Source: Phormidium tenue FACHB-1052 | GTDB taxonomy: Bacteria; Cyanobacteriota; Cyanobacteriia; Phormidesmidales; Phormidesmidaceae | Assembly (NCBI RefSeq): GCF_014696675.1 | Contig: NZ_JACJQN010000006.1 | Span: forward strand, 186,001-250,000 | Length of the DNA stretch: 64,000 nucleotides | Direction: 5' to 3' | In this document: positions 26,974-50,149 of the stretch, piece after piece | How the letters are laid out: each line of letters starts with the position of its first letter | Position numbering within the stretch: the first letter of the stretch is position 1 | The notes under the pieces: generated by a model | Database searches by the model: none | Told to the model about the DNA's origin: nothing | Seen by the model: only the letters and a program-made list of their open reading frames with translations | Translations under genes and position numbers: made by a program

Positions 26974-27046
26974 GGGGAATTAGCTCAGTTGGTAGAGCGC
27001 TGCGATCGCACCGCAGAGGTCAGGAGTTCGAATCTCCTATTCTCCA
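26974..27046 (+). tRNA. tRNA-Ala (anticodon CGC)
   Basis: A complete cloverleaf of 73 bases: acceptor GGGGAAT / ATTCTCC, D-arm GCTCAGTTGGTAGAGC, anticodon stem CTGCG / CGCAG with loop AT-CGC-AC, and T-arm around GTTCGAATC. CCA is not encoded. The anticodon CGC reads GCG. The HIP1 octamer GCGATCGC spans the anticodon (27002-27009). It is the attachment target of the transposon that begins 14 bases downstream. Confidence 0.95.
26991..27012 (+). other. CAST target: PAM and protospacer inside tRNA-Ala
   Basis: GGTA at 26991-26994 fits the Cas12k GTN-type PAM. The next 18 bases (26995-27012) match the detached guide at 27211-27228 with one mismatch (C in the tRNA, T in the guide at position 13). 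The transposon starts at 27060, 66 bases after the PAM, the distance known for type V-K insertion. Confidence 0.9.
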
Positions 27047-27059
27047 TTCTCAAATACGC

Positions 27060-27181
27060 TGTACGTTCGCACATTAAATGTCGCGATTCGCAGATTAGTG
27101 TCGTTTTTCGCACATTCATGTCGTTTTAGGTTGAATAAGAGATTGACATTGGTGAATATGCTACTCGCAAGTTAGATGTCG
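27060..27181. mobile_element. Type V-K CAST transposon end next to the tRNA
   Basis: The terminal sequence TGTACG begins at 27060. It is followed by an ordered set of TnsB-type repeats: TTCGCACATTAAATGTCG (27066-27083), TTCGCAGATTAGTGTCG (27087-27103), TTCGCACATTCATGTCG (27107-27123) and a fourth, CTCGCAAGTTAGATGTCG (27164-27181). This arrangement, on the CRISPR side of Cas12k, corresponds to the right end of known V-K elements. The five bases before it (TACGC, 27055-27059) should be the target duplication, but its partner was not found. Confidence 0.88.
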
Positions 27182-27210
27182 TAAATACTCAATTCCGGGT
27201 TTCCTCCGCT

Positions 27211-27265
27211 GGTGCAATCGCAGCGCTCCTTTCAACCCTCCCAAAGGCTCTTGAATGTAGGCTCT
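27211..27265 (-). ncRNA. Detached homing crRNA targeting tRNA-Ala
   Basis: A degenerate repeat ends in GGGAGGGTTGAAAG (27229-27242 on the minus strand) and is followed at once by the guide GAGCGCTGCGATTGCACC (27228 down to 27211). This 18-base guide matches the tRNA-Ala gene at 17 positions. In V-K transposons such short detached guides direct insertion into chromosomal tRNA sites. Only the last third of the repeat is conserved, which still allows pairing with the tracrRNA. Confidence 0.85.
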
Positions 27266-27281
27266 GTCTAACTGAAAAACT

Positions 27282-27540
27282 TCCCTCATTCGCCCATGGC
27301 TGGGAGGGCTGATGCGACTGGCTCAAGTCCCATCCACTAATCTGAATCAGGTCATCTTTCAACCCGCCCATGGCTGGGAGGGCTGATGCGACCCAAGTCA
27401 GGGTGAAGAGTGGCAGCCTAGCCCACCTACTTTCAACCCGCCCATGGCTGGGAGGGCTGATGCGACCAGGCACTGGGGTCAGGCTAGCAGTATGCTTGGC
27501 TAGCTTTCAACCCGCCCATGGCTGGGAGGGCTGATGCGAC
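27282..27540 (-). CRISPR. Short type V-K CRISPR array (4 repeats, 3 spacers)
   Basis: Four 37-base repeats at 27504-27540, 27430-27466, 27356-27392 and 27282-27318, separated by three 37-base spacers (27467-27503, 27393-27429, 27319-27355). Read from the minus strand, repeats begin GTCGCATCAGCCCTCCC and end GGGCGGGTTGAAAG, the ending typical of Cas12k repeats. The last repeat is degenerate at its 3' end. The array starts next to the tracrRNA and is followed by the detached homing guide. Spacer targets cannot be known without a search. Confidence 0.95.
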
Positions 27541-27728
27541 TCCGCAGCGTAAAATCATTAGTGTAAGCAGGTTCTAGACCTTAGTTTGACGAACCTACTC
27601 GCTATGGCTTTACTCTGACGGGGTTGGAGACGGCTAGATTTCGCTAGTAATCTCTCAAAAACAGCTCAGGCAAGCCTTTTAGGACTTTGGCAAACCCCCT
27701 GGGCATTTTACCCTTGCTTAGGTTTGCC

Positions 27729-28083
27729 AAAAAAAGTTGGGGGAGGGTTCCTCCTTGATCGGAGGCGATTCGGTAGCCACCTATCCAGTTGCTCCACAAC
27801 ACAAAGGCTGTAAAGGTTCCTGTACCCTCACAATGTGAAGGCTTGACTTCCTTTGCCGAGTGCGCACCTACGCTATATTACAAAGAGAGAACTCAAGTAA
27901 AAATAGCGAACCACCTTTTGTCAGCTTGCTGAACTCAGGCGGCGACTTCAGAGCTTGTTCAAAGAACAAATTCATTGGAAGCAGACAGCTACCAGGGCCG
28001 GAAAGAAAAGCTGTCGTACAACAGCCAAACTGACCCTTATTTTTCACAGTTCAGCGGCTCAAAAGCATGAACTGCGGCGCTAA
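27729..28083 (-). ncRNA. Cas12k tracrRNA
   Basis: Between cas12k and the array, the minus strand shows the features of V-K tracrRNAs: near its start AGCGCCGCAGTTCATGCT, later GTAGGTGCGCACTCGGCAAAG, then GTGGCTACCGAATCGCCTCC and GATCAAGGAGGAACCCTCCC, resembling the Scytonema hofmanni tracrRNA. AACCCTCCC (27749 down to 27741) is the anti-repeat. A run of seven T follows. TATGAT at 28095-28090 is a good -10 box, giving a start near 28083. At about 350 bases it is longer than the 216-base reference RNA, the extra length lying in the middle. Confidence 0.85.
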
Positions 28084-28126: not shown

Positions 28127-30106
28127 CTATTTTGACGCAGACTGGCGGCGATAATAAGCTGAAAAGACCACATCCCGAGCTGTAGCCTGGGGGCTATCCG
28201 CAACTAGCCCTGGCACAACCTCAACTGGGATGCCGAGTTTGGCAGCTCGGTTTTTTATCAACTCCGCCAACTGGTTGTAGCTCCAGTGATGCAGGCGGAT
28301 GCTTGCCGTTCGGGCATAACGTTTTTGAGCGGCGACGGAACCAACAATTTTGCTGGCCGCTTTCGCTCGCAGTTGAGCTTCAAGCTTATCCCTCAACCCT
28401 TTGGTATCTGGGAGCACGATGCTTGATACTCGAAATTGGATGGCAATATCAACGACCCGCTTTGCCAGAACTTGATTAAGGTAGGCTCCAAGGTTGGCCT
28501 CCTTATAAGGAGCATAGTGATCTTTTTTGAGGGCTTTGTGACGCTCATGGTCATGGCTTTGCTGCTGGGCCATTTGCTGCTGGGGAAGATGAGACTGATC
28601 AGTTTTGGGATCAGTCGTTGACAGAAGCTGGCGTGAAGAGTGATATTTGACAACCTCTTGAGACTGCACATCGACTACCGCTACCGTGACAGGATGCTTG
28701 AGGTTGAAACTAACCCCTAAAATTATCTGAGGCTGGCCTTGGTAGGGGGTTCGACTAGGTAAATGAATAGGATGCTGGGCAGAGCGCTGAAGACGATCAA
28801 GGCTCCCCTGTTGTCTAGCAGCCTGCACGGGCGTGGCATGGCGAGTCTGCTCAGATGATTGAGCGCTAGCGAGTTTCTTCTGCCGTTTCTCCTCGATACC
28901 CTCTTGGGTTAGAAGCTTGGTATCAATCTGACAGTGCAGGTAGAGGGAATGATCACTCCAAGGTTCTCCTGTTGCTCTATGCCTAGATTGCTGTACGGGC
29001 TTCCACAAGATGCTGGCAGTACGCAGCAAAAGCAGGCTGCCGGAAATAGGACCTTTGCCCCGGTTGTAAATATCCCAGTCCTGAACAAAGCGTTGAAAGT
29101 AATGATGCTGCCTAGCATCGCACTGTACCTTAAGTACATGCTTAGCCAATCCGTTGAGCTTGACGCAGATCTGCTGTTTGGGTTTCTGAGACTTGCCCCT
29201 AGGCACCTCCTCCACAAACCAAGTCAGGTTAAGATTGCCGCTATACAAAACAGGGTAAGGCAGGGGATTGGGTTCTCTCAGGAGTTGAGACTTCCACTGG
29301 GCAAACTCTTCTGTGCTGGTGGGTATTTGATAAGTTAGCAGTTCTAGGGCATTCAAAAAGTTCTCATCTGTTAGATCGCGCCCTTTTGGTAAACGGCTTG
29401 CAAGTTCTCTTTCTATACGACTGACTCCAGTCTGTTTGGCCAGCAGCATACGCTGATAGCGTTCGGGCTGCTCCGCTTGCTCTGGCACTGTACAGCCATT
29501 TTTGAGTAGACGAACAATAGCACAGCGATCCAGTGTTTCGGGTGATTCGTTGTACAGCTGAAAGAGTCGGTCGACCAATCGCCGCCGGGATACAATTTTG
29601 TCGCTTTGCTTTCGCTGTTTTTTGTTACCTCGTCTAGCTGGTTGTGGAGTAGGCTGTTTAGCCTGAATTTGATCTGTTGCTGTCTGCAAAATGGCCCTAG
29701 CCCTTTCTTGAAACGATTCCCAAGAGACACCACACAGCTTCAACATTTCGGTATCACTTTGAAGAATTTCCAGCCAGCGTCTCATTCCGTATAACCGGCG
29801 CAGGCGGGAAGCTTGTAAGGCGAACCACGCATCGTAGGTATAGGCCACCATAGTGCTGGCCGAACTGTAGAAACGGCCTGGCTGACCAGCAAATCGTTCA
29901 TCTTTTCTGAAGGATGCGCAGAGATCGCGAATTGCCTTAGCAGGAATCTTACTAGCTTGCCTCCAGTTCTCGAAATCGGGCTGAAGCGGGATAATACGCA
30001 TTAATTCTGAAACCAATGGCGTGTTGGAATGCGCCATCAAGTTCCAAAGATGTTGCCGAGTAGCAACTGAAGCCGTCAACCTACACTGGATTGTAATAAT
30101 ACTCAT
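28127..30106 (-). CDS. cas12k: Cas12k (C2c5), type V-K effector without evident nuclease motifs
   Basis: RNA-guided DNA-binding protein that recruits TnsC/TniQ/TnsB to a target instead of cutting. 659 residues against 637 for the Scytonema hofmanni protein. The N-terminus MSIITIQCRLTASVATRQHL followed by WNLMAHSNTPLVSEL is characteristic of the family. The RuvC region is degenerate as expected: the first motif reads LGVSFNLKHPVTVAV (about 464) with no catalytic Asp, and the second reads IVLPDTKGLRDK with no catalytic Glu. The C-terminus has HHWSYNQLAELIKNRA and DSPQATARDVVFSAYYRR. The gene is read toward its tracrRNA and array. No CvkR-type MerR regulator gene is seen beside it. Confidence 0.96.
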   Translation of the reverse strand: MSIITIQCRLTASVATRQHLWNLMAHSNTPLVSELMRIIPLQPDFENWRQASKIPAKAIRDLCASFRKDERFAGQPGRFYSSASTMVAYTYDAWFALQASRLRRLYGMRRWLEILQSDTEMLKLCGVSWESFQERARAILQTATDQIQAKQPTPQPARRGNKKQRKQSDKIVSRRRLVDRLFQLYNESPETLDRCAIVRLLKNGCTVPEQAEQPERYQRMLLAKQTGVSRIERELASRLPKGRDLTDENFLNALELLTYQIPTSTEEFAQWKSQLLREPNPLPYPVLYSGNLNLTWFVEEVPRGKSQKPKQQICVKLNGLAKHVLKVQCDARQHHYFQRFVQDWDIYNRGKGPISGSLLLLRTASILWKPVQQSRHRATGEPWSDHSLYLHCQIDTKLLTQEGIEEKRQKKLASAQSSEQTRHATPVQAARQQGSLDRLQRSAQHPIHLPSRTPYQGQPQIILGVSFNLKHPVTVAVVDVQSQEVVKYHSSRQLLSTTDPKTDQSHLPQQQMAQQQSHDHERHKALKKDHYAPYKEANLGAYLNQVLAKRVVDIAIQFRVSSIVLPDTKGLRDKLEAQLRAKAASKIVGSVAAQKRYARTASIRLHHWSYNQLAELIKNRAAKLGIPVEVVPGLVADSPQATARDVVFSAYYRRQSASK

Positions 30107-31053: not shown

Positions 31054-31443
31054 TTACTCTTCCTCGGCATCTGTTGGCTCTTCTATCATTCTTCGATACT
31101 CTTTCCGAGGATTAGCAACTTCGACTCCTTGTGTTATCTGCATCTCTAAATATGTATCGCTTGGCTCTATAGATAGGTCTGCTTGATCGCTCTCCTCCAC
31201 AGCCAGTTCATCTGGATCAAAGCCAAGCATTATAAGCATCAATTCGACTGAGGCTCCGAGGCAAGCTCCTAGAAGAAAAAACAGTTTTGCGGTTTCTTCA
31301 CGGGTAAATAACGCCGAATTACTTAGAAATTGTTCAAGCGCACTTTCCGGCAAATTAAATTCTTTACAGAGTCTTTCTTTTGTATAGCCATTGCTCTGTA
31401 AACCCTCTTCTATGTAATCTTGCAGAGGTTTTCTAGGACTCAT
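31054..31443 (-). CDS. Small HTH-like acidic protein
   Basis: A 129-residue protein, not recognised by name. Residues 15-60 look like an XRE/Cro-type helix-turn-helix (YTKERLCKEFNLPESALEQF), then a hydrophobic helix (AKLFFLLGACLGASVELMLI); the C-terminal 50 residues are acidic. It starts ATG at 31443, about 75 bases from the palindrome that ends the next unit, so that palindrome may regulate it. Confidence 0.6.
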   Translation of the reverse strand: MSPRKPLQDYIEEGLQSNGYTKERLCKEFNLPESALEQFLSNSALFTREETAKLFFLLGACLGASVELMLIMLGFDPDELAVEESDQADLSIEPSDTYLEMQITQGVEVANPRKEYRRMIEEPTDAEEE

Positions 31444-31517
31444 ATAGTTGTACTTCCGACCTTGGACATAGCATTAAAGCCACCCTCGGTTGGAAAGGTG
31501 GACAGCGCTCCATACCT

Positions 31518-31533
31518 GTAGCCTATAGACTAC
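31518..31533. promoter_or_regulatory. Palindrome site 1 (GTAGCCTATAGACTAC)
   Basis: A near-perfect 16-bp dyad covering the stop codon of the 108-aa gene and lying upstream of the 129-aa gene. It is one of four related sites at 31518, 31905, 32716 and 33098. Operator-like. Confidence 0.6.
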
Positions 31534-31856
31534 ATATCTTTGGCGCTGTCGTCAACAGCTTTCTCCTTCAATTTTTCCGCCATCCAGACAAGATCTACCA
31601 AGGTCAAGTATTTCTCGACCAGTTCAGGAGTTCGTTCCCTATCACTTAACCAGATGTTTGTGGATGTTGTCTGGTAGCCTGTTAGCTCGGACAGCAAGGC
31701 CTTTGATGCCTCTCGATAGCCTCGCTGATCTATAGCTACTCCCTTCTTGTCTAGGGTCCACCTAGCGCAGAAGTCAGCGGCTGAGGTCTTCTTGAACATT
31801 CCGCCCTCATCACTCATCGCCGCAAGGATAAGGTGTAGCGGGATATCTAAATCCAT
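31530..31856 (-). CDS. Unknown 108-aa protein bracketed by palindromes
   Basis: A compact helical protein (MDLDIPLHLILAAMSDEGGM, GVAIDQRGYREASKALLSE, YLTLVDLVWMAEKLKEKAV). No family is recognised. It is framed by two copies of a 16-bp palindrome, one 48 bases before the start and one over the stop codon. A second, broken copy with the same framing lies at 32728-33049. The layout suggests a DNA-binding autoregulator or a small antitoxin-like protein, but nothing in the sequence proves either. Confidence 0.6.
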   Translation of the reverse strand: MDLDIPLHLILAAMSDEGGMFKKTSAADFCARWTLDKKGVAIDQRGYREASKALLSELTGYQTTSTNIWLSDRERTPELVEKYLTLVDLVWMAEKLKEKAVDDSAKDM

Positions 31857-31904
31857 CAGCGGCTAGTTTCTCGAGAGGGCGATGCTGCTTACAGCAATCA
31901 ATTT

Positions 31905-31920
31905 ATAGCCTATTGACTAC
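31905..31920. promoter_or_regulatory. Palindrome site 2 (ATAGCCTATTGACTAC)
   Basis: The same dyad as site 1, 48 bases upstream of the 108-aa gene start, in the place of a promoter operator. Confidence 0.6.
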
Positions 31921-31961
31921 GAGTCGGGATTGAGGCAGATGAGCAGGTGTTGGGGCTGCCC

Positions 31962-32537
31962 TTAGTCCAATAAGCGTTGCCCCGCGAGCCAACTGGGGCA
32001 AGACCACTCTGACTCCCATAGGATGTTGTGCTCACTGTCATAGCAGTTCAAGCCAAGTTTGCTCCAATACTGCCGAAGCCTGAAACTTTGTAAGTCTGCC
32101 TCTTCCTGAGATTCAGTTCTAGGAAAGGGCATGGGCCTACAAAACACTAGCCCTTCCATAATTGTGTGCTGTATGTATGTGGCTACTGCCTTAAGGACAG
32201 GCACTTTGCCTCGCCAACAGGGTCTGATCTCAACCTTGCTAAGGTACAAGCAACCTTTGCACAGAGCAAATTCAATGTCTTCAGAGTTCTGCTCTTGTAG
32301 CCAGCTAACTGCTAAGGAAAGGTCTTGGTCTACCTCATCTGCATAGATAAGCAGCCCACTAACATGGTTGAAAAGCTCATAACCAACAATTTCCCCTACT
32401 GGAAGGCGAGTTTCATTTTCGCATGCCTCGTCATAACTACTTCCAAAGATGATGGCCCGTATCTCATGAACGAGGGAGCGTTCTTCCAATCTATTAATAT
32501 TGGTCTTACTACAAATTTCAACATGAAAATCTTCCAT
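31962..32537 (-). CDS. Unknown 191-aa protein between the two palindrome units
   Basis: Opens at ATG 32537 and ends 41 bases before palindrome site 2. No domain is recognised. The sequence is mixed alpha/beta with several cysteines (FALCKGCLYLSKVEIRPCW) and a Trp-rich C-terminus (NILWESEWSCPSWLAG). It is on the same strand as the small genes on each side and seems to be a separate passenger between two related units. Confidence 0.55.
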   Translation of the reverse strand: MEDFHVEICSKTNINRLEERSLVHEIRAIIFGSSYDEACENETRLPVGEIVGYELFNHVSGLLIYADEVDQDLSLAVSWLQEQNSEDIEFALCKGCLYLSKVEIRPCWRGKVPVLKAVATYIQHTIMEGLVFCRPMPFPRTESQEEADLQSFRLRQYWSKLGLNCYDSEHNILWESEWSCPSWLAGQRLLD

Positions 32538-32715
32538 ATCAGCGCTGTAAAGTTGACGTTACTGAGAAGAATTGTTGGAGAAATGAGCCATAGCCCCTAA
32601 AGACGCTGAGGTTAGTTGATTGCAATATTGCTTAGCCGCAGCTGTCTACAGAAAGGTGCCTATTGTCGCTTACCACTGATGGGCTTTGTGGAATCATCTG
32701 GTTTCTGGACGAATT

Positions 32716-32731
32716 ATAGCCTATCAGCTAC
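32716..32731. promoter_or_regulatory. Palindrome site 3 (ATAGCCTATCAGCTAC)
   Basis: Third copy of the dyad, over the stop codon of the broken duplicate, exactly as site 1 is over the stop of the intact gene. Confidence 0.55.
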
Positions 32732-33049
32732 AGTTTTTATGCCCATCTTCAACCGCTTTGTCTTTCATCTTCCCGGCTGCCCAGGCGAAATATACCAGGG
32801 TTAGATGCTTCTTAGCCAGCTCTGGGATCCATTCTCTGTCACTCAACCAGGTGTTTATAGACTCTGATAGCCCGTAAGCTCTGCTAGAAGAACCTTTGAT
32901 GCCTCGCGAAAATCTCTCTGGTCTGGCGTAAGTTCTTTCTTGTCAAGCGTCTAATGGGTGCAGAAGTCAGCGGCTGAGGTCTTTTTGAACGGGACGTTCT
33001 CATTACTTATCGCCGCAAGAATAAGGTGTAGCGGGATTTCTAAGTCCAT
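32728..33049 (-). pseudogene. Broken duplicate of the 108-aa palindrome-bracketed gene
   Basis: Starts MDLEIPLHLILAAISNEN and continues FKKTSAADFCTH, where a TAG stop replaces the sense codon of the intact copy (FCARW). After LAELTGYQS a one-base deletion shifts the frame, which then resumes as INTWLSDREW and ends KDKAVEDGHKN. Start, stop and both flanking palindromes are at the same relative positions as in the intact copy. Confidence 0.8.
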
Positions 33050-33097
33050 CTGTAGCTCATCCATTACCAGCTTCGGCCATGAACAGGTTTTCCATTC

Positions 33098-33113
33098 ATA
33101 GCCTATGAGCTAC
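33098..33113. promoter_or_regulatory. Palindrome site 4 (ATAGCCTATGAGCTAC)
   Basis: Fourth copy of the dyad, 48 bases upstream of the start of the broken duplicate, equal to the spacing of site 2 from the intact gene. Confidence 0.55.
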
Positions 33114-33579
33114 GGAAATAATCCAGGTCGCTGCTTATCCCACTTCCGCTGCCTCGGGTTTGGCTACCTCTTCGGCAAAAAGGATGAGCTTGCCTATGGC
33201 AGCCTCAATCCTTTTCAGAAGGGTCTGTTGGTGGGTCACAAGAAAGCCTTTAAGGTTGTCTGTATGGAGGTATTTCGGGGGAATAGCGTGGGACTGAGGA
33301 ATGTCGTCCATGCTCTCATCGTCGAGCTGAACATGCTTGTGGGTCTGAAGTTGCTGTAGATAGGCGCTGGGCGCTCTACCACCGACTACTGTCACACTGA
33401 GGACAAGGAACCGCTTCTAAAGCTATCGTCAGCACTAGGTAACGTCACTGTTACCTTAGATCAACTTCAATATGTCTAGAACACTACTCCTTTCAGGACT
33501 TTTCTGCACCACTAAAGGAGAATGGCATTGAATTAAGGTTAGTGGGCCGAGCTCACCTACACTCTCTGTCTGGAAATCC
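33114..33579. other. 466-bp region before the NACHT gene
   Basis: One weak minus-strand frame (33135-33395, 86 codons, GTG start; product includes LKRIEAAIGKLILFAEEVAK) could be a small helical protein of the same cluster, but no clear ribosome site supports it. The rest holds the NACHT upstream region without a recognisable operator. Confidence 0.4.
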
Positions 33580-36500
33580 ATGGTATTAGACATTCTGACT
33601 GCAATCGGGTTGAAGGAAACAGGTAAGTACGTCGCTAAAGATGTGTTGGCGCCTCTCCTGCAAAGCAGTCTAGAAGATTATGCCAAGGATTTTTTTAAGA
33701 GTCGTATTGCGGATGCAGCAGGTTTAGCAAGCCAAGCGCCCGTGCAGAAAGCGCTAGGTGAGGCGCTGAAGGCGTTTGTGGAACTTGTGGAAGAGGAGCT
33801 GGAGTTTCAGGGCTGCTCTGGGGTAGAGATTCGTGACTTTTATGAGGTTCCGCTGCGGGAGTTCATGAAGGATAAGGACGCGAAGGCGACGTTGGGACAA
33901 GCCTTCGAGCCGGATTGCCGCAGCATAGATGCTGAGGTGCTGACGCTGCGGTGGAAAGCGCTAGATTTGCGACCCTTGCCAGAGGAGTTTGATTGGCTGC
34001 AAATTGGCAAGCAGTACGTGCGAGCCGTAAAGGGCATTTTGCGGAGTTCGAATGAACTGCGGGATTTGCTGAAGCTGCACAATCAGGAAGCCATGCGCCG
34101 AGGCATCGAAGAACTGGTGGGCATCCCGCCGGATTTTGATTTGCAGAAGTATCAGGAGACCCTGCGGGAGCAGTACGGCAACCTGAAGCTGGAGTCGCTG
34201 GATACATCTGCCTGTGCCTACAACAACCTGGAACTGTGGCACATGTTCATTCCCCAGAATGTGCGGGCGTGCCAGAAGTTTAACCCCAAGGTGTATGAGA
34301 TTCCGAAGGAAAAGTTTAAGGAGCTCCAGCAGCGGGGGGAACTGGATGCGGAAGCGCTGGAGGCGGCACAAATCGAAGCCTATCGCCGGATCTATATGGA
34401 GCAGCCTATCCAGAATGTGCTGGAGGTGTTGGGGCGAATCGCAGTGGTGAGGCAGCAGAGCCGCCCGGTGGCGGACCATGTGGTGGTACTGGGCGATCCG
34501 GGGTCGGGGAAATCGATGCTGTTGCAGTATGTGGCATTGCAATGGGCAGAGCAACCGATTCGTGACCTGAAGGAACTGGCCCAGCGACCGCTGCCGCTGC
34601 TGATTGAATTGCGGAAGTATGCGCGAGACCGGAATGACAAAAAATGCAACAGCATGGTGGAGTACCTGCACCAGGGCGATATTGCCTGTCGGCTGAATCA
34701 GCAGCGACTCCATGAGGTGCTGCTGGCGGGGGATGCTATTGCCCTGTTTGATGGCATTGATGAGGTGTTTGACCCGCATCTGCGGGGTGTCGTAGTGACG
34801 GATATTCACCGCTTTACCAACGACTACCCCCAGGTGCAGGTGGTGGTGACCTCGCGGTGGCTGGGGTATAAGGCGCAGACGCTACGAGATGTGGGGTTTC
34901 AGCACTACATGCTGCAAGACCTGACAGATGAGCAGATTGCCGAGTTTATTGCGCGGTGGCATGACCAGACGTTTCCGGAAGGGGCGGATAAAGTGCGCAA
35001 GCGGGAGCGGTTGCACAAAGCAATTCGAGAATCGAAGTCGATTCGGGAGCTGGCGGGGAACCCGCTGCTGCTGACGATGATGGCGATTTTGAACCGCAGC
35101 CAAGAGTTACCAAGAAATCGTCTAGAACTATACGACCAGGCATCGCAAGTATTGCTGCACCAGTGGGATGTGGAGCGGAATTTGATTGAGCAGAAGCTAG
35201 ACCCGATGACGATCAATTATCAGGATAAGCAGGCCATGCTGCGGAAGGTGGCGTTTCACATGCAGTCAAGCAAAGCGGGGCTAGCGGGAAACATCATTAG
35301 CGGCCAGGAGCTGGAAGCGATTTTGACAGACTATTTGAAATCTATTGATGTCGATCAGCCTCGTGATATAGCACGGCGTATGATTCAGCAGCTACGGACA
35401 CGGAATTTTATTTTGTGTGACCTGGGAGCTGATAACTATGCTTTTGTACACCGAACGTTTTTAGATTTTTTTGCCGCACGGGCCTTTGTCTGGAAATTTA
35501 AGGAAACCCATGCGATCACCTTTGAAGAATTGAGAGATTGTACATTTGGTTCCCACTGGTACGATGAAACCTGGCATGAGGTTCTATGTTTGATCTGTGG
35601 AATGCTTGATTATTCTTTCTCAGATATGCTAATAGCTTACCTGATGAATGAGAAGTTTAGCGAGCATTCAAAGCATTTACTTTTAGCTGCTAATTGCCTA
35701 AAAGAAGTGAAGCATCACTATAAGGCTTGTACGACTTCTACAAAGCTGTTGTCGGAACTTAAATCTGTATATGAAGGAATAAACCTTAGAATCACTCGTC
35801 GTGAGTATACGGCTGAGGAATTTATGAAAGAGAGGTATCATGATACCGAGTTAATTTCTTCCTTGATTAAGACAATTGCTGAGGTTTGGAACGAATCTTC
35901 CAATGTCTTGGAATGGTTGATGAACCAGGCAAGAACTCAGGATTCCGACTTCATACGTACTCATATACTTCAATGCGTTCAAGCAAATTGGAGACCTTCA
36001 CCGGAGTTATTTAGCTTCTTCGCCGAACGAGCACTTGAGGATCAGAGCCGACATATTATGGCCCCAATTAGCAATCCTTCCCTCATGGCAGCAGCAATTT
36101 TAGCCGAATATTATCCTCATCACAACGACACTACAGAAATAATATTGAAAAAGCTTAAGGAAGATGTCGACGAATCCGCGAGAGGTAGTCTGTTAAGCTA
36201 CCTGCTGAAAATTTGGGGAAAAGGTAATAAGTCGTTTGAATTTCTTTGTGACTATGTAACAAGTCATACTTTGCATAGTCGAGTAATATCGTCATCACAT
36301 AGTTCAAAAACTACTGCACTTTCTTTACTTGCTGAGCACTATGCTGAGCGCTCTAAGACTATAGACCTTCTGCAAGACTGTGTTCTCAATGATCCTTTTG
36401 AACGTCGAATGCATGATTTTCAAAGGAACCCTCGCCAAAATTCCCTAGAAATTTTACTGAAGCATTATCCTGGCCATCCCAAAACTTTGGAACTGCTGCA

Positions 36501-36588
36501 AAATTGCGTCCAAAACGACAACGACGAGCAGCTAAGGGAATGGGCCGAAAAGCAGCTTGCCAAGGCAGTTGGTTCCGCTCAACGATAA
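33580..36588 (+). CDS. NACHT-domain NTPase (bacterial NLR-like)
   Basis: A 1002-residue STAND NTPase. Residues 1-290 are a helical N-terminal region of unknown type (KETGKYVAKDVLAPLL, FIPQNVRACQKFNPKVYEIP); the NACHT follows with Walker A VVVLGDPGSGKSMLL (about 303), Walker B AIALFDGIDEVFD (about 387) and SIRELAGNPLLLTMMAILNR near 490. The last 400 residues are helical repeats of a likely sensor (KTIDLLQDCVLND, KTLELLQNCVQND). Bacterial NACHT proteins are known anti-phage sensors. Base composition changes from GC-rich to AT-rich at about 35.47 kb, inside the gene. The N-terminal effector cannot be named. Confidence 0.9.
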   Translation: MVLDILTAIGLKETGKYVAKDVLAPLLQSSLEDYAKDFFKSRIADAAGLASQAPVQKALGEALKAFVELVEEELEFQGCSGVEIRDFYEVPLREFMKDKDAKATLGQAFEPDCRSIDAEVLTLRWKALDLRPLPEEFDWLQIGKQYVRAVKGILRSSNELRDLLKLHNQEAMRRGIEELVGIPPDFDLQKYQETLREQYGNLKLESLDTSACAYNNLELWHMFIPQNVRACQKFNPKVYEIPKEKFKELQQRGELDAEALEAAQIEAYRRIYMEQPIQNVLEVLGRIAVVRQQSRPVADHVVVLGDPGSGKSMLLQYVALQWAEQPIRDLKELAQRPLPLLIELRKYARDRNDKKCNSMVEYLHQGDIACRLNQQRLHEVLLAGDAIALFDGIDEVFDPHLRGVVVTDIHRFTNDYPQVQVVVTSRWLGYKAQTLRDVGFQHYMLQDLTDEQIAEFIARWHDQTFPEGADKVRKRERLHKAIRESKSIRELAGNPLLLTMMAILNRSQELPRNRLELYDQASQVLLHQWDVERNLIEQKLDPMTINYQDKQAMLRKVAFHMQSSKAGLAGNIISGQELEAILTDYLKSIDVDQPRDIARRMIQQLRTRNFILCDLGADNYAFVHRTFLDFFAARAFVWKFKETHAITFEELRDCTFGSHWYDETWHEVLCLICGMLDYSFSDMLIAYLMNEKFSEHSKHLLLAANCLKEVKHHYKACTTSTKLLSELKSVYEGINLRITRREYTAEEFMKERYHDTELISSLIKTIAEVWNESSNVLEWLMNQARTQDSDFIRTHILQCVQANWRPSPELFSFFAERALEDQSRHIMAPISNPSLMAAAILAEYYPHHNDTTEIILKKLKEDVDESARGSLLSYLLKIWGKGNKSFEFLCDYVTSHTLHSRVISSSHSSKTTALSLLAEHYAERSKTIDLLQDCVLNDPFERRMHDFQRNPRQNSLEILLKHYPGHPKTLELLQNCVQNDNDEQLREWAEKQLAKAVGSAQR

Positions 36589-36688
36589 TGACCTTATCAA
36601 AGTTTTCCGACAGTACCCGAGCGGTTAGAAGCCCAGCGATACTTCCTCCAATAACGACAGCCCGCGCTGGAGGGGTGCCATTACTCAT
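36575..36688 (-). pseudogene. N-terminal stub of an FAD-dependent monooxygenase
   Basis: From ATG 36688 the minus strand encodes MSNGTPPARAVVIGGSIAG then LLTARVLSENFDKVIIVER, the FAD-binding Rossmann start of a monooxygenase. Homology stops near 36575, where the NACHT gene's 3' end begins on the other strand. It marks a recombination joint. Confidence 0.75.
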
Positions 36689-37058
36689 AGCCAAAAGCCT
36701 TTTTCGTTGGTGGATTCTTGATTAGAATATCAAGCCCATCCTAAAAGTGGTGGAGAAAACTCGTTTGAGTCTCATGATAGGTAATTTAGACGGTCACCTT
36801 AAAACTGAAAGCCATTGCCTTCATTCAATGCTTTGAGAAATCCCCAAGCTCAGGAATCGCTGCATACAGTTTCTCGACTCCATGCGAGAGGTAAGTTCGA
36901 CTTTTTACGCGCACCGATTTTTTCGAAAAAAGGGAGTGCCTATAATTGGGGTAGATGGGGCAGCTTTGTGAAAGTGAGTAAAGCTAAAATCCGAAAGCGC
37001 CAGGCGAATAAAACGGTAGGTAGTTGGAAATTGACCCGTCGTCAGCAGCTATCATCCT
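36689..37058. other. 370-bp stretch with dispersed repeat copy 2 and a promoter-like box
   Basis: No gene is seen. It contains repeat copy 2 and TATAAT at 36951-36956 directly after it, probably the promoter of the HTH/Zn-ribbon gene. Confidence 0.55.
36852..36940. repeat. Dispersed repeat, copy 2
   Basis: Contains GCTGCATACA and, 40 bases later, ACTTTTTACGCGCACCGAT (from 36900) with a following T/A-rich tail and GAGTGCCT, paralleling copy 1 (GAGTTGCCT). It lies just before a TATAAT box. Confidence 0.7.
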
Positions 37059-37100
37059 GTGGTGAAAAGAGTGCAAAAGGAGGAGAGTGAGTTTGTGGTG

Positions 37101-37748
37101 ATGCCCAGTAGAGTTAGGCCCATTGAAGAAGCGCTGCTAGGTCACAAGCGCTACATCGAGCTGCACCAGCAAGGCTGGAACAATGGGGAGATCGCTGACG
37201 TGATGGATGTGTCCCGCGAGCGAGTGCGGCAGGTATTGAGTTTCTACGGCCTGAAAAGCGTGAAAAGTGCGTCCCGTACAGTCGCTGACAAGCAGCTCGT
37301 TGACGCGATTTGTCGTTTGTATGACTATAAAGACCTGAGAGAGATTGCCAGGAGTATGCGAGTGGCAGCATCTGCCCTAGAAGAGGCTGTTCGGCAGCGA
37401 GACCCGTTAGCGCTTACACTCCAAGCCGAGCAGCGAGCTGAAAAGCACAAGGCGGCCCTAGAGCAACGCCTACAGGAGAAACTCGACTACTGGAAGTCGG
37501 TCAGTCCGGTTGGTCTGCTAACAGTAACGTCGATGTGGCGAGATGAGTCTGGGGAGTTTCGCGCTGGTGCTCGATGTGAGTGTGGCCGTGAGACCAGTGT
37601 GTGCCTGGCATTCCTGCGAAAGGGGCGAGTGTTTTCTTGCGGTAGGTCAGGGTGCCACGGACAAGTCAGGGCCTCGGCTGGTGCATTTAAGGCTAAAGCG
37701 CATCAAGCTGCTAAAAATGAGCCAAAACGCCGCGCCGGGAGAGTGTGA
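37101..37748 (+). CDS. HTH protein with C-terminal zinc-ribbon-like motif
   Basis: About 215 residues. The N-terminal part has a resolvase/sigma-like helix-turn-helix (YIELHQQGWNNGEIADVMDV, SRERVRQVLSFYGLKS), a second helical segment (LREIARSMRVAASALEEAV), a coiled linker, and a C-terminal CxC...C..C cluster (GARCECGRETSVC, FSCGRSGCHGQ) with a basic tail (AKNEPKRRAGRV). GGAGGAG at 37079-37085 supports a start at GTG 37095 or ATG 37101; an upstream in-frame GTG at 37059 lies before that site. Likely a DNA-binding regulator; it is not a MerR protein like CvkR. Confidence 0.7.
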   Translation: MPSRVRPIEEALLGHKRYIELHQQGWNNGEIADVMDVSRERVRQVLSFYGLKSVKSASRTVADKQLVDAICRLYDYKDLREIARSMRVAASALEEAVRQRDPLALTLQAEQRAEKHKAALEQRLQEKLDYWKSVSPVGLLTVTSMWRDESGEFRAGARCECGRETSVCLAFLRKGRVFSCGRSGCHGQVRASAGAFKAKAHQAAKNEPKRRAGRV

Positions 37749-37871
37749 TCAGGAGCAGCCAGTGCGCTTATGACCAGCATTTTTCGAGTCAATGGACAAT
37801 TTAGAACGTGGATCGAAGATTTTGGGCTGTGTCTCTTGAGGGCTTCACACCGTGATGAAGACAACAGGCAG

Positions 37872-38078
37872 TCATAATGTCTCGTCCTTAGAGCGATGAA
37901 GGGACCAGAAGTCTTCCTCAAGCTTGATTCCAATTCGCCGTCCATCGTTCATTTTCAGAGTCATTTCCTGTAACCCCTTGCTATCCAGATAGCGAGCGAG
38001 GATCAGCAGCACGTCTACAAGCTCATCTTGAGCGGGCCGTTTCGATTCTGTAGGTTGGTTCTTCCGCTTCCTGGTCAT
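37872..38078 (-). CDS. Small hypothetical protein (68 aa)
   Basis: Starts basic (MTRKRKNQPTESKRPAQDEL), then an amphipathic helix (LVDVLLILARYLDSKGLQE) and a short acidic end. No family is recognised. It is the last gene before the IS903-like insertion. Confidence 0.45.
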   Translation of the reverse strand: MTRKRKNQPTESKRPAQDELVDVLLILARYLDSKGLQEMTLKMNDGRRIGIKLEEDFWSLHRSKDETL

Positions 38079-38145
38079 AGCAAAAAGGACTCCAAGTGTA
38101 CGGTCGACTAAACAGCTGAATAACTGTAGTTTCGTAGTTCAAAGG

Positions 38146-39204
38146 GGCGTTGTTGCATAAAAGGGAGGGTTACGAACGGGGTAAAGGCTTAAGGTTTAAG
38201 TACTACCCAAAACCTGACGCCGATGCAATACCGAGTCCGTAACTGGTCTGAGTATAACGCTGGCTTGAAGCAGCGCGGACGCCTCACCTTTTGGTTGGGC
38301 GAGGACGCCCTAAAGCAGTGGCTGGTGACCACGCCCACAGGACAGCGAGGGGCATCGCTAACCTACAGCGATGGGGCGATTGCGACGGTTGCAACGCTCA
38401 AACGCCTATTTCACCTGGCCGGTCGCCAAGCGCAGGGCTTGGTCGAATCGTTGTTTCAGTTGATGCACATTTCCCTGCCAGTGCCCGACCACAGCACGGT
38501 ATCGCGACGGTTGGGAGCCTTATCGGTGGTCATGCCGGTTCGGCCAGCCACTGGGGCTCGCCATATCGTGGTGGATTCCACGGGCATCAAAGTCTATGGG
38601 GAAGGGGAATGGAAAGCCCGACAGCATGGTGTGAGCAAGCGGCGCACGTGGCGCAAACTTCATCTCGGTGTCGATGAGGCGACCGGGGAGATCTTGGTCG
38701 CCGAGGTCACCACCAATGATTATCACGACAGCGAGATCCTCCCTAGTTTGCTCGGTGGCATTGACGGTGAGGTGGCCCAAGTCTCCGGCGATGGGGCTTA
38801 CGACACCTTTGCTTGCCATGAGGCGATTGCCCAGCGTGCCGCTGTGGCAACGATTCCACCGCGTCACGATGCACGCCCCTCTCAGCGCAAGGACGATAAG
38901 TCAAGCCACCTAAGAGACCAGATTTTGCAGCGCATTGACGAGGTAGGACGCTCGGCTTGGAAGCAGGAAAGTGGCTACCATCGCCGGTCACTGGCTGAAA
39001 CCACCATGTTTCGCCTCAAGGTCACCTTTGGCGGACGAGTGCGCTCTCGGACATTTGATAATCAGGCTGTCGAACTCTTCTTGCAGTGTGCGGCGCTCAA
39101 TTGCATGATTCAACTGGCCAAACCCGATAGCTATCCAGTTGAGGCTTAGTTCACCGACCTGATCAAAGAACGAGTGACGCTTGACCTATTCATGCAACAA
39201 AGCC
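38146..39204 (+). mobile_element. IS5-family insertion sequence, IS903 group (1059 bp)
   Basis: Ends GGCGTTGTTGCAT (left) and ATGCAACAAAGCC (right) form imperfect terminal inverted repeats typical of IS903. The length is near the 1057 bp of IS903, and one transposase gene fills it. The intact ends, gene and duplication point to a recent insertion. Confidence 0.92.
38223..39149 (+). CDS. IS5-family (IS903 group) transposase
   Basis: 308 residues of a DDE transposase. Start MQYRVRNWSEYNAGLKQRG and the domain DHSTVSRRLG are family marks; catalytic blocks are IVVDSTGIKVYGEGEW (first Asp), VSGDGAYDTFACHEAI (second Asp) and YHRRSLAETTMFRLKVTFGG (Glu in the Y-R-E-K-type signature). No frameshift is seen, so it could be active. 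Confidence 0.93.
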   Translation: MQYRVRNWSEYNAGLKQRGRLTFWLGEDALKQWLVTTPTGQRGASLTYSDGAIATVATLKRLFHLAGRQAQGLVESLFQLMHISLPVPDHSTVSRRLGALSVVMPVRPATGARHIVVDSTGIKVYGEGEWKARQHGVSKRRTWRKLHLGVDEATGEILVAEVTTNDYHDSEILPSLLGGIDGEVAQVSGDGAYDTFACHEAIAQRAAVATIPPRHDARPSQRKDDKSSHLRDQILQRIDEVGRSAWKQESGYHRRSLAETTMFRLKVTFGGRVRSRTFDNQAVELFLQCAALNCMIQLAKPDSYPVEA

Positions 39205-39213
39205 GTTCAAAGG

Positions 39214-39635
39214 TACCCCATAGAAAATTGCAAAAATGTCTGGGGGACAACGCTGCTTAGTACAGGGGATAGCGTGGCCTTCATTATTGCCCAATGGCTG
39301 CTCTCAGAACTGCCAACATCGACTCCTGACCCAGACACTCCAGACGCTCTACAGCATCTGCTGAGGGTCAACTCCGTGGCGTTCTGCCTGCCATATCCTT
39401 TACCTGGCCTGCCGGACCAGAGTTTTATCTGTCCCGGCTACTGTGGCAGATGTTTGGAGTCCCTGAATTTACTGAAATAGAGCAATCAGCAGATATTCGA
39501 ACGGCTTTGACCAGGAAGTGGCAACCCGTAGCTTAGTTAGACAGCTATAGCTAAGTACTGTAGATCGCGGCTTATCCCATTGATGCTGCCTTGGGTACAG
39601 CCACTCTTCGAGGAATTTTCTATAGGTTTTCCTTA
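39214..39635. other. 422-bp segment between two insertion sequences
   Basis: A short frame (to TAG 39478-39480) encodes WLLSELPTSTPDPDTPDAL and a Cys-containing tail but lacks a credible start inside this segment. It is probably a gene remnant separated by the IS903-like insertion. Confidence 0.4.
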
Positions 39636-40546
39636 GAGGGCGTTTGAGAAGTTGACTGGCAGTAAAAAAGCTCACACGGTCTAGGCTGAGATTACTAAGA
39701 CTACAGCCCCGTGAGAGCGATGAGTAAAGCCTACACCAGCGATCTGACCCGTGACCAGTTTGAGTTGATTGAGCCCCTTGTTGCCAGCGGCACAGACAGG
39801 AGGGCGGCCGCGAAGCTTGTGTCTGTGGGCGGTGCTCAATGCTATTTTCTATCTGGTCACTCAGGGATGTAGTTGGCGGGACTTACCCGGTGACTTTCCG
39901 ACTTGGCAAACGGTGTACACCTACTACCGTAACTGGGTTAAAGACGGCACTTGGGAGGCTCTCCATGAGCGTCTGCGAGGGTGGACACGCGCGGCGGCTG
40001 ACCGTCCCGAGAGCCCGTCGGAAGTTATTTCGGACAGCCAAAGCGTTGCCACCGCACCGATGGTGCATCGCTCAGTGGGCTATGACGCAGCCAAAGCGAC
40101 TAAAGGGCGAAAGCGGCATCTGGTCGTCAATACCCTGGGTCTGATGATGGCGGTTGTGGTCACTGCCGCTAGCGTTCCCGAGAGAGCCGGAGGTCAGCAG
40201 GCACTGCAAAAGCTCCATCAGATGGGGGAACGGGTAGCGAGAGTCTATCTGGTCTGGGCCGACGGCGGTTATAGCGGCCCCAACTTTCTGCAATGGGCGA
40301 TGGATACCTTGGGTTGGATCGTCCAGATCGTCTTGCGACCTCAAGAATCAAGGGGCTTCGTCTTGCTTAAAAAACGCTGGGTAGTCGAGCGCACCTTTGG
40401 CTGGTGGCGCTGGTCTCGTCGCCTGGTTCAAGACTATGAGCAGTTGCCTGAAAATGCTGAGGCCATGCTCCAGATTGCCATGATTCGCATCATGCTGAGG
40501 CGCTTGGCCTAATTCGCTACACCTCGACCCCTTTTCAAATGCCCTC
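39636..40546 (+). mobile_element. IS5-family insertion sequence, IS427 group (911 bp)
   Basis: Ends GAGGGCGTTTGAGAAG (left) and, on the opposite strand, GAGGGCATTTGAAAAG (right). It is flanked by the 3-bp duplication TTA (39633-39635 and 40547-40549), as expected for the IS427/IS1031 group. Confidence 0.9.
39720..40512 (+). pseudogene. IS427-group transposase, one frameshift
   Basis: ATG 39720 opens MSKAYTSDLTRDQFELIEPL, the usual N-terminus of these proteins. The rest (LLPAAQTGGRPRSLCLWAVL, WRDLPGDFPTWQTVYTYYRN, VVERTFGWWRWSRRL) is in the next frame from 39769. Removing one C from the CCCC run at 39774-39777 would restore IEPLLPAA. It could be a mutation, a sequencing error, or frameshift expression known for some members of this group. 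Confidence 0.85.
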
Positions 40547-40648
40547 TTAAAAGCTTTCTATCACAAGGCTTCTAAGCCTTATGGTTTAAATCAATATAGG
40601 CTTAGACAACTTGTTGATAGTAAAATTCTCATAAAACGCTACGCGACC

Positions 40649-41752
40649 TTACTTCAACAGAACCACCGGATGGGCTCTGAATCGGGGATTTCCAGGGAAC
40701 GCAGAATAACAGACCCGACTACCGACAGTGGGTTTACTAGGGCCATAAACACTGTCGGAGTGAAAAAAGATTTCCTGATTCGTTTCAGAATCATAGAGAA
40801 AACCTATGGAACCTCGAATTCTATGAACTTGTCCAATTCTTCTTTCAAACGTATTATAACAAATGTCCTCACAAATTTTAACTAAACTATCAGAAGAAGG
40901 TCTATCTTTAGGTGACTTAGAAAGACAAAAAAGAATGAGGTCATATAATATTTTGCATAATGGAACAAACTGATTATTGGAATTAAGAGAATTACGAAAT
41001 TCAGAATCATCAAATGGAGGAAGTTCAAGTTTGTCAATTCTACGAACTGCTTGTAAGCCAGTTCCAAAGGGCTTTTCCCCTATCAATAGCTCATACATCA
41101 TTGCGCCTAGAGACCATATATCAGCCTCTACCCCTACACTCCTAGGAGAATCAATCATTTCAGGAGCCATATAAGGCAAAGCACCAACTGCAGTTTGAGA
41201 GCCAGTAATTGATTCTTCTCCAAATTCCTCCATTCCTTCTACAGCTGAGATGATTTCTTCCTCTGCTAGCTTTGCAATTCCAAAGTCTGTAATTTTAATC
41301 TCTAACAAGTTAAAATTTCCAACTACCATTACATTCTTAGGCTTTAAGTCACGATGCACAACACCAACATGATGTGACGCGCAAATACCTTTAGCAATAT
41401 GATGAAAGATTTTGGCAACCAAGTAAGGGTCGATGACCTCAAGGTCTGTTAATAAGGCTTTTTGAAGGTCAAAACCATCAATATATTCTTCAACAAGGTA
41501 TAAGCCAGAATCTTCCTCTAAATAGTCAAGTGTTTTTGCAACATTAGGATGATTAATTCGAGCACTTACAACAGCACTGCGTTGAAATCGCTTCTGGGCA
41601 GAAGAATTTTTAGGGGTTTTCAAAGCTACTTGCCTATTCATAAGGCTATCTTGAGCAAGATAAACCTCTTGCATCCCGCCTTCCCCCACAAAATTTTCTA
41701 TAAGGTAGCGATCTGCAATTAGATCGCCAGTATTATGGATTTTGCCACTCAT
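40649..41752 (-). CDS. Ser/Thr kinase with C-terminal cold-shock-like domain
   Basis: A 367-residue Hanks-type kinase that looks active: glycine loop FVGEGGMQEVYLA, lysine in QVALKTPKN (about 46), catalytic loop VVHRDLKPKNVM (about 131), DFG in ITDFGIAKL and PYMAPEMIDSP. The C-terminal 60 residues (RGSIGFLYDSETNQEIFFHS, VGSRVCYSAF) resemble a cold-shock OB domain, so RNA or DNA binding may be joined to phosphorylation. The start overlaps the stop of the next upstream kinase gene by ATGA (41749-41752), showing coupling. It is last in a four-gene row on the minus strand. Confidence 0.85.
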   Translation of the reverse strand: MSGKIHNTGDLIADRYLIENFVGEGGMQEVYLAQDSLMNRQVALKTPKNSSAQKRFQRSAVVSARINHPNVAKTLDYLEEDSGLYLVEEYIDGFDLQKALLTDLEVIDPYLVAKIFHHIAKGICASHHVGVVHRDLKPKNVMVVGNFNLLEIKITDFGIAKLAEEEIISAVEGMEEFGEESITGSQTAVGALPYMAPEMIDSPRSVGVEADIWSLGAMMYELLIGEKPFGTGLQAVRRIDKLELPPFDDSEFRNSLNSNNQFVPLCKILYDLILFCLSKSPKDRPSSDSLVKICEDICYNTFERRIGQVHRIRGSIGFLYDSETNQEIFFHSDSVYGPSKPTVGSRVCYSAFPGNPRFRAHPVVLLK

Positions 41753-42831
41753 ATAACAACTTCAGGATGGGAAATATCTACGGTGAAAAACTCTCTACTT
41801 GGGCTCTTCTCATCGCCCAAGGTAATAACGCAAGAACCAGGTAACAAATCCCCTTTCTTACAAGTAGTATTGTTAATAAAAACACTACCAGAAACGTTCA
41901 GCACTTTAAAGTCCAGTCCATTGTAAACAATCTCTATCTGCCCAAAATTCGTATAGCTAAGCCGTACAGCCTGGTTTTTCTCTTCTAATGAATAGGTTCT
42001 TTGGGGAGTAGCAATTATTGCTCTATGCCTATTTGAAAGAAGATACTTCTTTACTGTATCTCTAATAGTTTGCACTTTAGGTCGATTATCAGGCACTTCA
42101 TCAAGAGTCAAATCCAGAAGATCAATCACTGGATCAGGAACTGCAAAGTGGATAACTTCTCTAAAACTAGGAACATGCGAAAGATCAGGAGGAATCTGAA
42201 GCATTCCTTCTGGTAAGTCTTTCTGAAACAAAGATAAAATAGTTATTCCAAAAGCATAAACATCCACGGCCTCAGTAAAGAAAACGTGGCCTCGAGTACA
42301 CAGTTCTGGAGCGGCAAAACAGGGAGTTCCTTTAAAGCCCTGAGTATGGGAATTCAAGCCCTGGATTCTAGTCAAGCCAAAATCGAAAATCTTTAATAGA
42401 CCTTCTTGGTCATATTTCATATTAGTGGGCTTGATGTCTCGATGAACCAAGCCCTGTTCATGTATATCACTCAATCCAGAAGAGATTTGAAAAATAATCT
42501 TCAGAAAATCACCAGCGTTCAACTCCTTAGAGTCGATACATGTCAAATCTACGCCTTGCAAATACTCTTCAACAATCCCTATCACTCTTTCGCTTTGGGA
42601 AGAGCCGACAACGATGTCGTAAATTTGAACAACATGGTTAGATCGAATCTTTTGAAGAGCTTTTATCTCGTCTTGGACTCTAGAAAACTCTGAACCAGTT
42701 GACAAGACTTTAATAGCAACTTTTCTTTCGAGAACTAAGTCAATACAAGGCAGAACACTACTCATTCCACCTTTCAGGATGGTTCCATCAGGACGATATC
42801 TATCAGGTAAAGAGAGTCCATCTATGTCCAT
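41749..42831 (-). CDS. Ser/Thr kinase with C-terminal FHA-like or unknown domain
   Basis: About 360 residues. Kinase marks: LKGGMSSVLPCIDL glycine loop, VAIKVLSTGS lysine, GLVHRDIKPTNMKYD (about 128), IFDFGLTRI, and FAAPELCTRGH. The last 85 residues (IEIVYNGLDFKVLNV, GSCVITLGDEKS, FFTVDISHPEVV) form a small beta-rich domain, possibly phosphopeptide-binding. I prefer ATG 42831 because AGG lies 8 bases upstream and the frame extension to 42888 runs into the PP2C gene. The kinase gene follows the PP2C stop by 13 bases. Confidence 0.85.
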   Translation of the reverse strand: MDIDGLSLPDRYRPDGTILKGGMSSVLPCIDLVLERKVAIKVLSTGSEFSRVQDEIKALQKIRSNHVVQIYDIVVGSSQSERVIGIVEEYLQGVDLTCIDSKELNAGDFLKIIFQISSGLSDIHEQGLVHRDIKPTNMKYDQEGLLKIFDFGLTRIQGLNSHTQGFKGTPCFAAPELCTRGHVFFTEAVDVYAFGITILSLFQKDLPEGMLQIPPDLSHVPSFREVIHFAVPDPVIDLLDLTLDEVPDNRPKVQTIRDTVKKYLLSNRHRAIIATPQRTYSLEEKNQAVRLSYTNFGQIEIVYNGLDFKVLNVSGSVFINNTTCKKGDLLPGSCVITLGDEKSPSREFFTVDISHPEVVI

Positions 42832-42844
42832 AATAAGCCTGAAA

Positions 42845-44035: not shown

Positions 44036-44221
44036 AAGAGTAAAATTAGAGAGTCTTAAGCGTTTAAACTCTGTCCATTCATTAAGCGAAGCAACGAAGA
44101 TATTTTACCCAGCAGAATTGACGACAGCGATTAGTCCTACATAATAACTCAATTCCGAGAAATTGTGTAGGTACTCAATTTTCTTGCTTATGCAATAATT
44201 GGGAAATACTACTTGCCAGAA

Positions 44222-45640: not shown

Positions 45641-45752
45641 TCAAGGGTTTTGAATTTAAGATGCCCAAATGCTCCCCTGAAAGCAGGGTTGATTCAAGGT
45701 GATGAGATAAAAATTAAGCTGTAAGGTGCTGTCGTCTCTCCCAGGAGTTGCT

Positions 45753-46001
45753 ATGAACCTCATAGAAGCCTTGCAGACCGTCCCTGATTATCGCAAGGCT
45801 CGTGGGAAACGCCACCTGTTATGGATCATTTTGGTGTTCATTGTGATGGGGAAATTAGCCGGGTATCGGGGCAATCGTCCCTTAGAGGAGTTTGCACAAC
45901 GCTACGTGCAGAGGTGGCCCGCCTATTGCAATATTGGCTTAATTTTCCCGCTAGATAAAAGAGCTATCTCTACTGTGCAGGTGGTAATAGTCCTGTCCTA
46001 G
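45753..46001 (+). pseudogene. ISAs1-type transposase N-terminal fragment
   Basis: Starts after a good ribosome site (AGGAG, ATG 45753) with MNLIEALQTVPDYRKARGKR and LVFIVMGKLAGYRGNRPLEE, the N-terminus of ISAs1-family transposases. After about 70 residues similarity ends and the frame closes at TAG; the DDE catalytic domain is missing. The 230 bases after it contain no usable gene and may be further remnants. Confidence 0.85.
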
Positions 46002-46788: not shown

Positions 46789-46810
46789 TGCTTGTATACT
46801 GTGACGATTC

Positions 46811-48004: not shown

Positions 48005-48024
48005 AGTATTCTCCCTCAACTCTA

Positions 48025-50090: not shown

Positions 50091-50149
50091 GAGATGCCTC
50101 CGGGGGTGTTATGGAATGCGGCCTCTACATCAAAGCTACCTAATTAATC

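What the first reader, a model, noticed from the sequence alone, without database searches (positions are those of the whole stretch)
26991..27265. Self-consistent homing of a type V-K transposon into tRNA-Ala
A detached guide (27228-27211, minus strand) matches tRNA-Ala(CGC) at 17 of 18 positions. The matching site has a GTN PAM (GGTA), and the transposon end starts 66 bp after it. All three facts agree with known guide-directed insertion by V-K CASTs, and here they can be read from one locus. The target is the anticodon arm itself.
Basis: partly seen in the sequence, partly recalled or inferred. Interest (0 to 1): 0.9.

Follow-up and report, generated by a model that had tools for sequence, protein, structure and literature searches.

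The report
RNA-guided transposon parked beside tRNA-Ala
A cyanobacterial jumping element carries a small RNA guide copied from a tRNA-alanine gene and sits exactly where that guide would send it; this is a well-documented example of a behaviour already published for this class of element (type V-K CASTs).

Summary
A truncated repeat (R*, 27229-27241) and detached guide (27228-27211, minus) match tRNA-Ala(CGC) at 26995-27012, 17 of 18 bases, behind a GTA PAM; the transposon end begins at 27060.

The interpretation also holds. The missing tnsB/tnsC/tniQ genes and the other transposon end lie on another contig (C17:5928-9441). Both ends carry the same 5-bp target duplication, TACGC. Same-genus genomes show the uninterrupted empty site. 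No genomic site matches the guide better. Same-genus relatives give a natural control: elements with a tRNA-Val guide sit at tRNA-Val while their tRNA-Ala site is empty, and the window's genome shows the reverse.

It is not new in kind. tRNA homing by truncated V-K repeat-spacers was described in 2021 and reviewed since; 56 of 81 Cas12k loci surveyed here show it, and tRNA-Ala(CGC) is a recurrent site. New here: a well-resolved member with a very divergent Cas12k. A by-product worth following: R* is fully complementary to the tracrRNA anti-repeat, while the array repeats carry a mismatch there in most loci. I could not establish whether that is already published.

The parts
26974..27046 (+). 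tRNA-Ala(CGC), the attachment-site gene, intact
   Evidence: ARAGORN and Rfam RF00005 67.8 bits
26992..26994 (+). GTA PAM (GTN)
   Evidence: sequence; the other tRNA-matched V-K loci surveyed also have GTN here (the survey favoured GTN when several matches tied)
26995..27012 (+). Protospacer: 3' strand of the D stem through the anticodon stem-loop
   Evidence: 17/18 inverted repeat with the guide
27055..27059 (.). 5-bp target-site duplication TACGC; second copy at C17:9442-9446 (L006)
27060..27181 (.). Transposon left end: TGTACG terminus and three TnsB-site-like repeats (27066-27083, 27087-27103, 27107-27123)
   Evidence: 39/44 identical to the inverted right end on C17; conserved up to this base in same-lineage elements and divergent beyond it
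27211..27228 (-). Detached (anchor / delocalized) guide
   Evidence: same guide, including the mismatch, in G446
27229..27241 (-). Truncated repeat R* GGAGGGTTGAAAG
   Evidence: 12/13 match to the array repeat 3' end; perfect complement of the tracrRNA anti-repeat over 8 bp
27282..27541 (-). CRISPR array: three 37-nt repeats plus one degenerate terminal repeat, three spacers
   Evidence: 74-nt spacing
27738..27765 (-). tracrRNA 3' hairpin and anti-repeat (CCTCCGATCAAGGAGGAACCCTCCCCCA; anti-repeat 27749-27742), followed by a T-run
   Evidence: the same hairpin and anti-repeat in dozens of V-K loci
28127..30106 (-). cas12k, 659 aa, full length
   Evidence: NF038191 736 bits; PDB Cas12k E 3e-119
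31054..64000 (.). Cargo inside the transposon (NACHT, Ser/Thr kinases, PP2C, QatC-like, HTH-IrrE, WD40 and TIR-CHAT-AAA proteins, IS transposases), continuing beyond the window to the contig end
   Evidence: Pfam/NCBIfam/PADLOC; the tns genes and right end lie on contig C17, L006:5928-9441

Best explanation
[quoted passage not shown] A short transcript downstream of the CRISPR array provides R* plus a 17-18-nt guide. With tracrRNA and nuclease-dead Cas12k it binds tRNA-Ala(CGC) next to the GTA PAM. TniQ and TnsC are then recruited, and TnsB inserts the element 66 nt away, past the 3' end of the tRNA, which stays intact. Shown by sequence: guide-target match, PAM, spacing, both ends, target duplication, empty site, all core genes, and guide-site correspondence within one lineage. 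Inferred from work on V-K systems: expression, loading and insertion by this element.
For: Cas12k. TnsB, TnsC and TniQ on C17 match the solved ShCAST proteins. Inverted ends 39/44 identical and identical TACGC flanks. Empty site uninterrupted in at least 5 same-genus genomes. The guide's best PAM-bearing genomic match is this tRNA. Same-lineage elements: G446 at tRNA-Ala with the same guide; G395, G414 and G440 with a tRNA-Val(TAC) guide at tRNA-Val. tRNA-Ala is empty in those three, and tRNA-Val is empty in the window's genome. In G395 and G414 cas12k and tnsB lie about 45 kb apart on one contig, matching the split element here. 56 of 81 surveyed Cas12k loci have the same R*-guide-tRNA-PAM arrangement.
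Against: Contigs C33 and C17 are not physically joined in the assembly; the link rests on the target duplication, matching ends, shared tandem-repeat coding sequence at both contig ends, and there being only one Cas12k and one V-K-type TnsB in the genome. The guide carries one mismatch. No transcript or activity data. The retained match could partly reflect vertical inheritance since the insertion rather than current targeting.
Confidence: 0.96

Rival explanations
1. The insertion was guided by an earlier, perfectly matching guide or another route, and the present mismatched guide is a decaying remnant that no longer works.
For: One mismatch at position 13; mismatched guides are common in the survey (17 of 37 distinct guide/target pairs).
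Against: The identical mismatched guide persists in G446, whose Cas12k is only 85% identical, so it has survived while the gene diverged. Mismatches across V-K guides fall almost only at PAM-distal positions (17 of 19 at position 10 or beyond), as expected if they are tolerated. The mismatch keeps a U:G wobble.
Confidence: 0.12
2. The inverted match is a by-product of something else, such as an integrase att site or tRNA-gene duplication, and not a guide.
For: In this family tRNA-Ala(CGC) also looks like an integrase-type att site: 3'-half fragments starting in the anticodon arm occur elsewhere, e.g. C18:47650-47701.
Against: The match starts exactly after R* ...GGGTTGAAAG, ends at 18 nt, has a PAM, and sits in the position and orientation of anchor guides in 55 other loci; guide and site switch together in relatives.
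Confidence: 0.01
3. C17 tnsBCQ belongs to a different element, and the window holds a defective Cas12k island without its own transposase.
For: The two parts are on different contigs.
Against: Matching ends and target duplication, correct order and orientation, same tandem-repeat sequence at both contig ends. Contiguous elements of the same lineage have the same layout and size.
Confidence: 0.03

Closest known systems
Type V-K CAST homing by delocalized / anchor crRNA (reviewed in PMC11406308; architecture in PMC9938897; originals cited there: Saito et al. 2021, Hsieh and Peters 2021, not held here)
   Same: Cas12k, TnsB/C/TniQ, tracrRNA, array, truncated R*, short guide to a tRNA just outside the left end, GTN PAM, 46-82 nt spacing, left end facing the tRNA
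   Different: 18-nt match with one mismatch where usual guides are 17 nt; Cas12k about 35-40% identical to others outside its genus; no regulator ORF found in reverse orientation next to cas12k
ShCAST (Scytonema hofmanni)
   Same: Each core protein matches its solved ShCAST counterpart over most of its length
   Different: Different tRNA target from recall; larger cargo (about 48 kb element); distant Cas12k clade
V-K CASTs at tRNA-Ala(CGC) in Cyanocohniella LLY (L041), Nostoc NMS4 (L093), Chlorogloea purpurea (L082), and G382
   Same: Identical protospacer position in tRNA-Ala(CGC)
   Different: Different guide mismatches (position 15) or, at one G382 copy, none; different Cas12k clades

Membership tests
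Type V-K CAST | Cas12k effector | tested here: met
   NF038191 736.6 bits vs cut-off 150
Type V-K CAST | tnsB-tnsC-tniQ in this order next to the right end | tested here: met
   L006 7311-9281, 6464-7309, 5928-6455; PDB matches E 2e-109, 4e-25, 2e-52; on another contig
Type V-K CAST | No TnsA | tested here: inconclusive
   TnsB is not fused to TnsA, and no ORF of at least 100 aa lies between tnsB and the right end; no TnsA profile was searched genome-wide
Type V-K CAST | Inverted TG...CA ends with TnsB-site repeats and 5-bp target duplication | tested here: met
Type V-K CAST | tracrRNA with conserved hairpin and anti-repeat between cas12k and the array | tested here: met
   (sequence level only)
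Type V-K CAST | R* plus short guide matching a site just outside the left end, GTN PAM, 46-82 nt spacing | tested here: met
   range from PMC9938897
Type V-K CAST | Inactivated RuvC catalytic residues in Cas12k | not tested
   residues not examined
Type V-K CAST | Insertion directed by the guide in cells | not testable with these tools
   only comparative evidence

The most novel reading that the evidence does not exclude
Across V-K CASTs the homing crRNA is marked off from the array crRNAs by one base: R* pairs perfectly with the tracrRNA anti-repeat, while array repeats keep a mismatch at that position. Homing guides would then outcompete array guides for tracrRNA/Cas12k, a built-in priority switch between homing and spreading.
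Probability: 0.3. Interest if true: 0.6.

Novelty: new member of a known kind. Interest (0 to 1): 0.3.

Why it matters
It is a clear natural demonstration that a V-K transposon's address is written in its detached guide: in one genus, elements of one lineage sit at tRNA-Ala or tRNA-Val according to the guide they carry, with the reciprocal sites empty. It also adds a divergent Cas12k lineage with complete components for comparison with ShCAST. The R*/tracrRNA complementarity pattern gives a one-base, testable hypothesis for how homing and array guides are kept apart.

Tried and rejected
Idea that guide mismatches at tRNA-Ala(CGC) serve to break the cyanobacterial HIP1 octamer GCGATCGC inside the protospacer: the window and three surveyed loci break it, but a wider search found HIP1-intact guides (G382:C1:4006433 perfect, others in G030, G125, G068), so rejected. 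Idea that the mismatch reflects another, better target such as tRNA-Ala(UGC): no better genomic match. Array spacers against phage and plasmid collections: no match at E 0.1. Counting tracrRNA base switches on the Cas12k tree gave only 2 changes, too few for an independent covariation test.

Full report
OBSERVATION. The guide and target are as described. On the minus strand, R* (GGAGGGTTGAAAG, plus-strand 27229-27241) is followed by GAGCGCTGCGATTGCACC (27228-27211). On the plus strand, tRNA-Ala(CGC) at 26974-27046 contains GAGCGCTGCGATCGCACC at 26995-27012, preceded by GTA. The repeat finder returned the pair independently as the only inverted repeat of the region, 17/18. Chance of such a match within 600 nt is about 5e-7. 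The mismatch is at guide position 13 and gives a U:G wobble. The protospacer spans the 3' strand of the D stem, the 5' anticodon stem and the anticodon loop.

THE REST OF THE ELEMENT. The window has a full-length Cas12k at 28127-30106 (for PDB relatives), a CRISPR array and a tracrRNA hairpin plus anti-repeat, but no transposase genes of this type were found in it. The window is C33:186001-250000 of a contig of 251353 bases. Whole-genome searches found the TnsB-type domain on C17 and in a different Tn7-like element on C12. C17 carries tniQ, tnsC and tnsB, all on the minus strand, matching ShCAST proteins of known structure. Just beyond tnsB is an end ...GACGTACA followed by TACGC. Read inward it is TGTACGTCCGCACGC..., 39/44 identical to the window's end, and TACGC is also the 5 bases before 27060. 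The end of C33 and the start of C17 carry the same tandem-repeat coding sequence, a plausible reason for the assembly break. In same-genus genomes G395 and G414, elements of the same lineage have cas12k and tnsB about 45 kb apart on one contig in the same orientation, matching the roughly 48 kb expected here.

EMPTY SITE. A query made of the tRNA flank joined to the C17 flank matched several same-genus genomes without interruption across the junction: G414, G424, G395, G439, G440. The alignment runs tRNA, short spacer, then CCTCAAACCATTACGCAACAAGG, where the window's genome has the transposon.

SPECIFICITY. With a GTN PAM, the best genomic match to the guide is this tRNA with one mismatch; all other sites have three, apart from the guide's own locus, which lacks a PAM.

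NATURAL GUIDE SWAP. A search of 28 same-genus genomes found five with Cas12k of this lineage (68-85% identity). G446 carries the same guide, mismatch included, and sits at tRNA-Ala(CGC). G395, G414 and G440 carry a perfect 17-nt guide to tRNA-Val(TAC) and sit at tRNA-Val; no guide could be read in G403, where the locus is cut short. Their left ends align with the window's up to the terminal base and diverge outside it. In those three, tRNA-Ala is empty; in the window's genome, tRNA-Val is not followed by a transposon end. Guide and location change together. That att sites differ among close V-K relatives is already stated in the literature (PMC11406308).

SURVEY. Of 81 Cas12k loci (80 named cyanobacterial records plus the window), 56 have an R*-guide matching a tRNA next to the left end with a GTN PAM. 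The search favoured GTN in case of ties, so the PAM count is not an independent test. The left end lies mostly 52-73 nt from the PAM. Targets include tRNA-Val, Pro, Thr, Cys, Arg, Leu, Lys, Ala and others. Three other loci use the same tRNA-Ala(CGC) protospacer, and a pattern search across the phylum found more guides of this sequence. Among 37 distinct guide/target pairs, 20 are perfect; 17 of 19 mismatches lie at position 10 or beyond. The binomial p of 1.4e-4 ignores relatedness, and matches with more than two mismatches were not collected.

COMPARISON WITH KNOWN SYSTEMS. PMC9938897 describes this exact plan for 118 V-K systems: tRNA facing the left end, R* of about 12 nt, a 17-nt anchor spacer, GTN PAM, 46-82 nt spacing. 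PMC11406308 calls tRNA homing by truncated repeat-spacers the norm. This locus meets the tested criteria (absence of TnsA was only partly tested), so it is a new member of a known kind. Its Cas12k is on the longest branch of a 91-protein tree, at most 40% identical to the others in that tree; the closer same-genus copies found later were not in the tree, and its placement is uncertain.

BY-PRODUCT. The third base of the 13-nt R* differs from the array repeats in most loci, in the direction that restores pairing with the tracrRNA anti-repeat. In a first scoring, 35 of 45 scorable loci have R* paired and array mismatched, 2 the reverse. With a stricter tracrRNA motif, R* pairs in 41 of 46 and array repeats in 5 of 40. 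For the window the predicted duplex energies are -14.4 vs -9.9 kcal/mol. On the Cas12k tree the tracrRNA base changes only about twice, so this is not a formal covariation proof, and I could not check key papers for prior mention. It is a lead.

NOT SHOWN. No data on transcription, loading or transposition; Cas12k catalytic residues were not examined; physical linkage of the two contigs is inferred.

Noticed in passing
window 27229-27241 vs 27282-27541; survey loci L040-L119: R* of the homing guide is fully complementary to the tracrRNA anti-repeat while array repeats carry a one-base mismatch, in most V-K loci surveyed.
   Followed up: partly
survey loci: Mismatches in V-K homing guides are concentrated at PAM-distal positions (17 of 19 at position 10 or beyond), and 8 of 19 keep a G:U-type wobble.
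   Followed up: partly
G382:C1:3973912-4006459 (L151, L152): Three guides for the same tRNA-Ala(CGC) lie within 33 kb, next to Cas12k copies in the same orientation: apparently V-K elements stacked at one tRNA.
   Followed up: partly
G392:C2:1054000-1056500 (L154): Eight tandem 104-bp copies of a tRNA-Ala(CGC)-like sequence (5' half intact, palindromic insert in the anticodon arm) precede the intact tRNA gene.
   Followed up: partly
G000:C18:47650-47701 (L153): A 52-bp exact copy of the 3' part of tRNA-Ala(CGC) starting in the anticodon stem, like an integrase att fragment; a tyrosine recombinase lies about 0.5 kb beyond the CAST right end at C17:9911-10837.
   Followed up: partly
[quoted passage not shown] only ORFs under 60 aa.
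   Followed up: partly
window 33580-50090: Cargo includes NACHT, Ser/Thr kinases, PP2C, QatC-like and HTH-IrrE proteins, which look like defence genes.
   Followed up: partly
G000:C12:288169-291939 (L008): A second Tn7-like element with two TniQ proteins and a 905-aa frame with the TnsB-type domain in the same genome.
   Followed up: no
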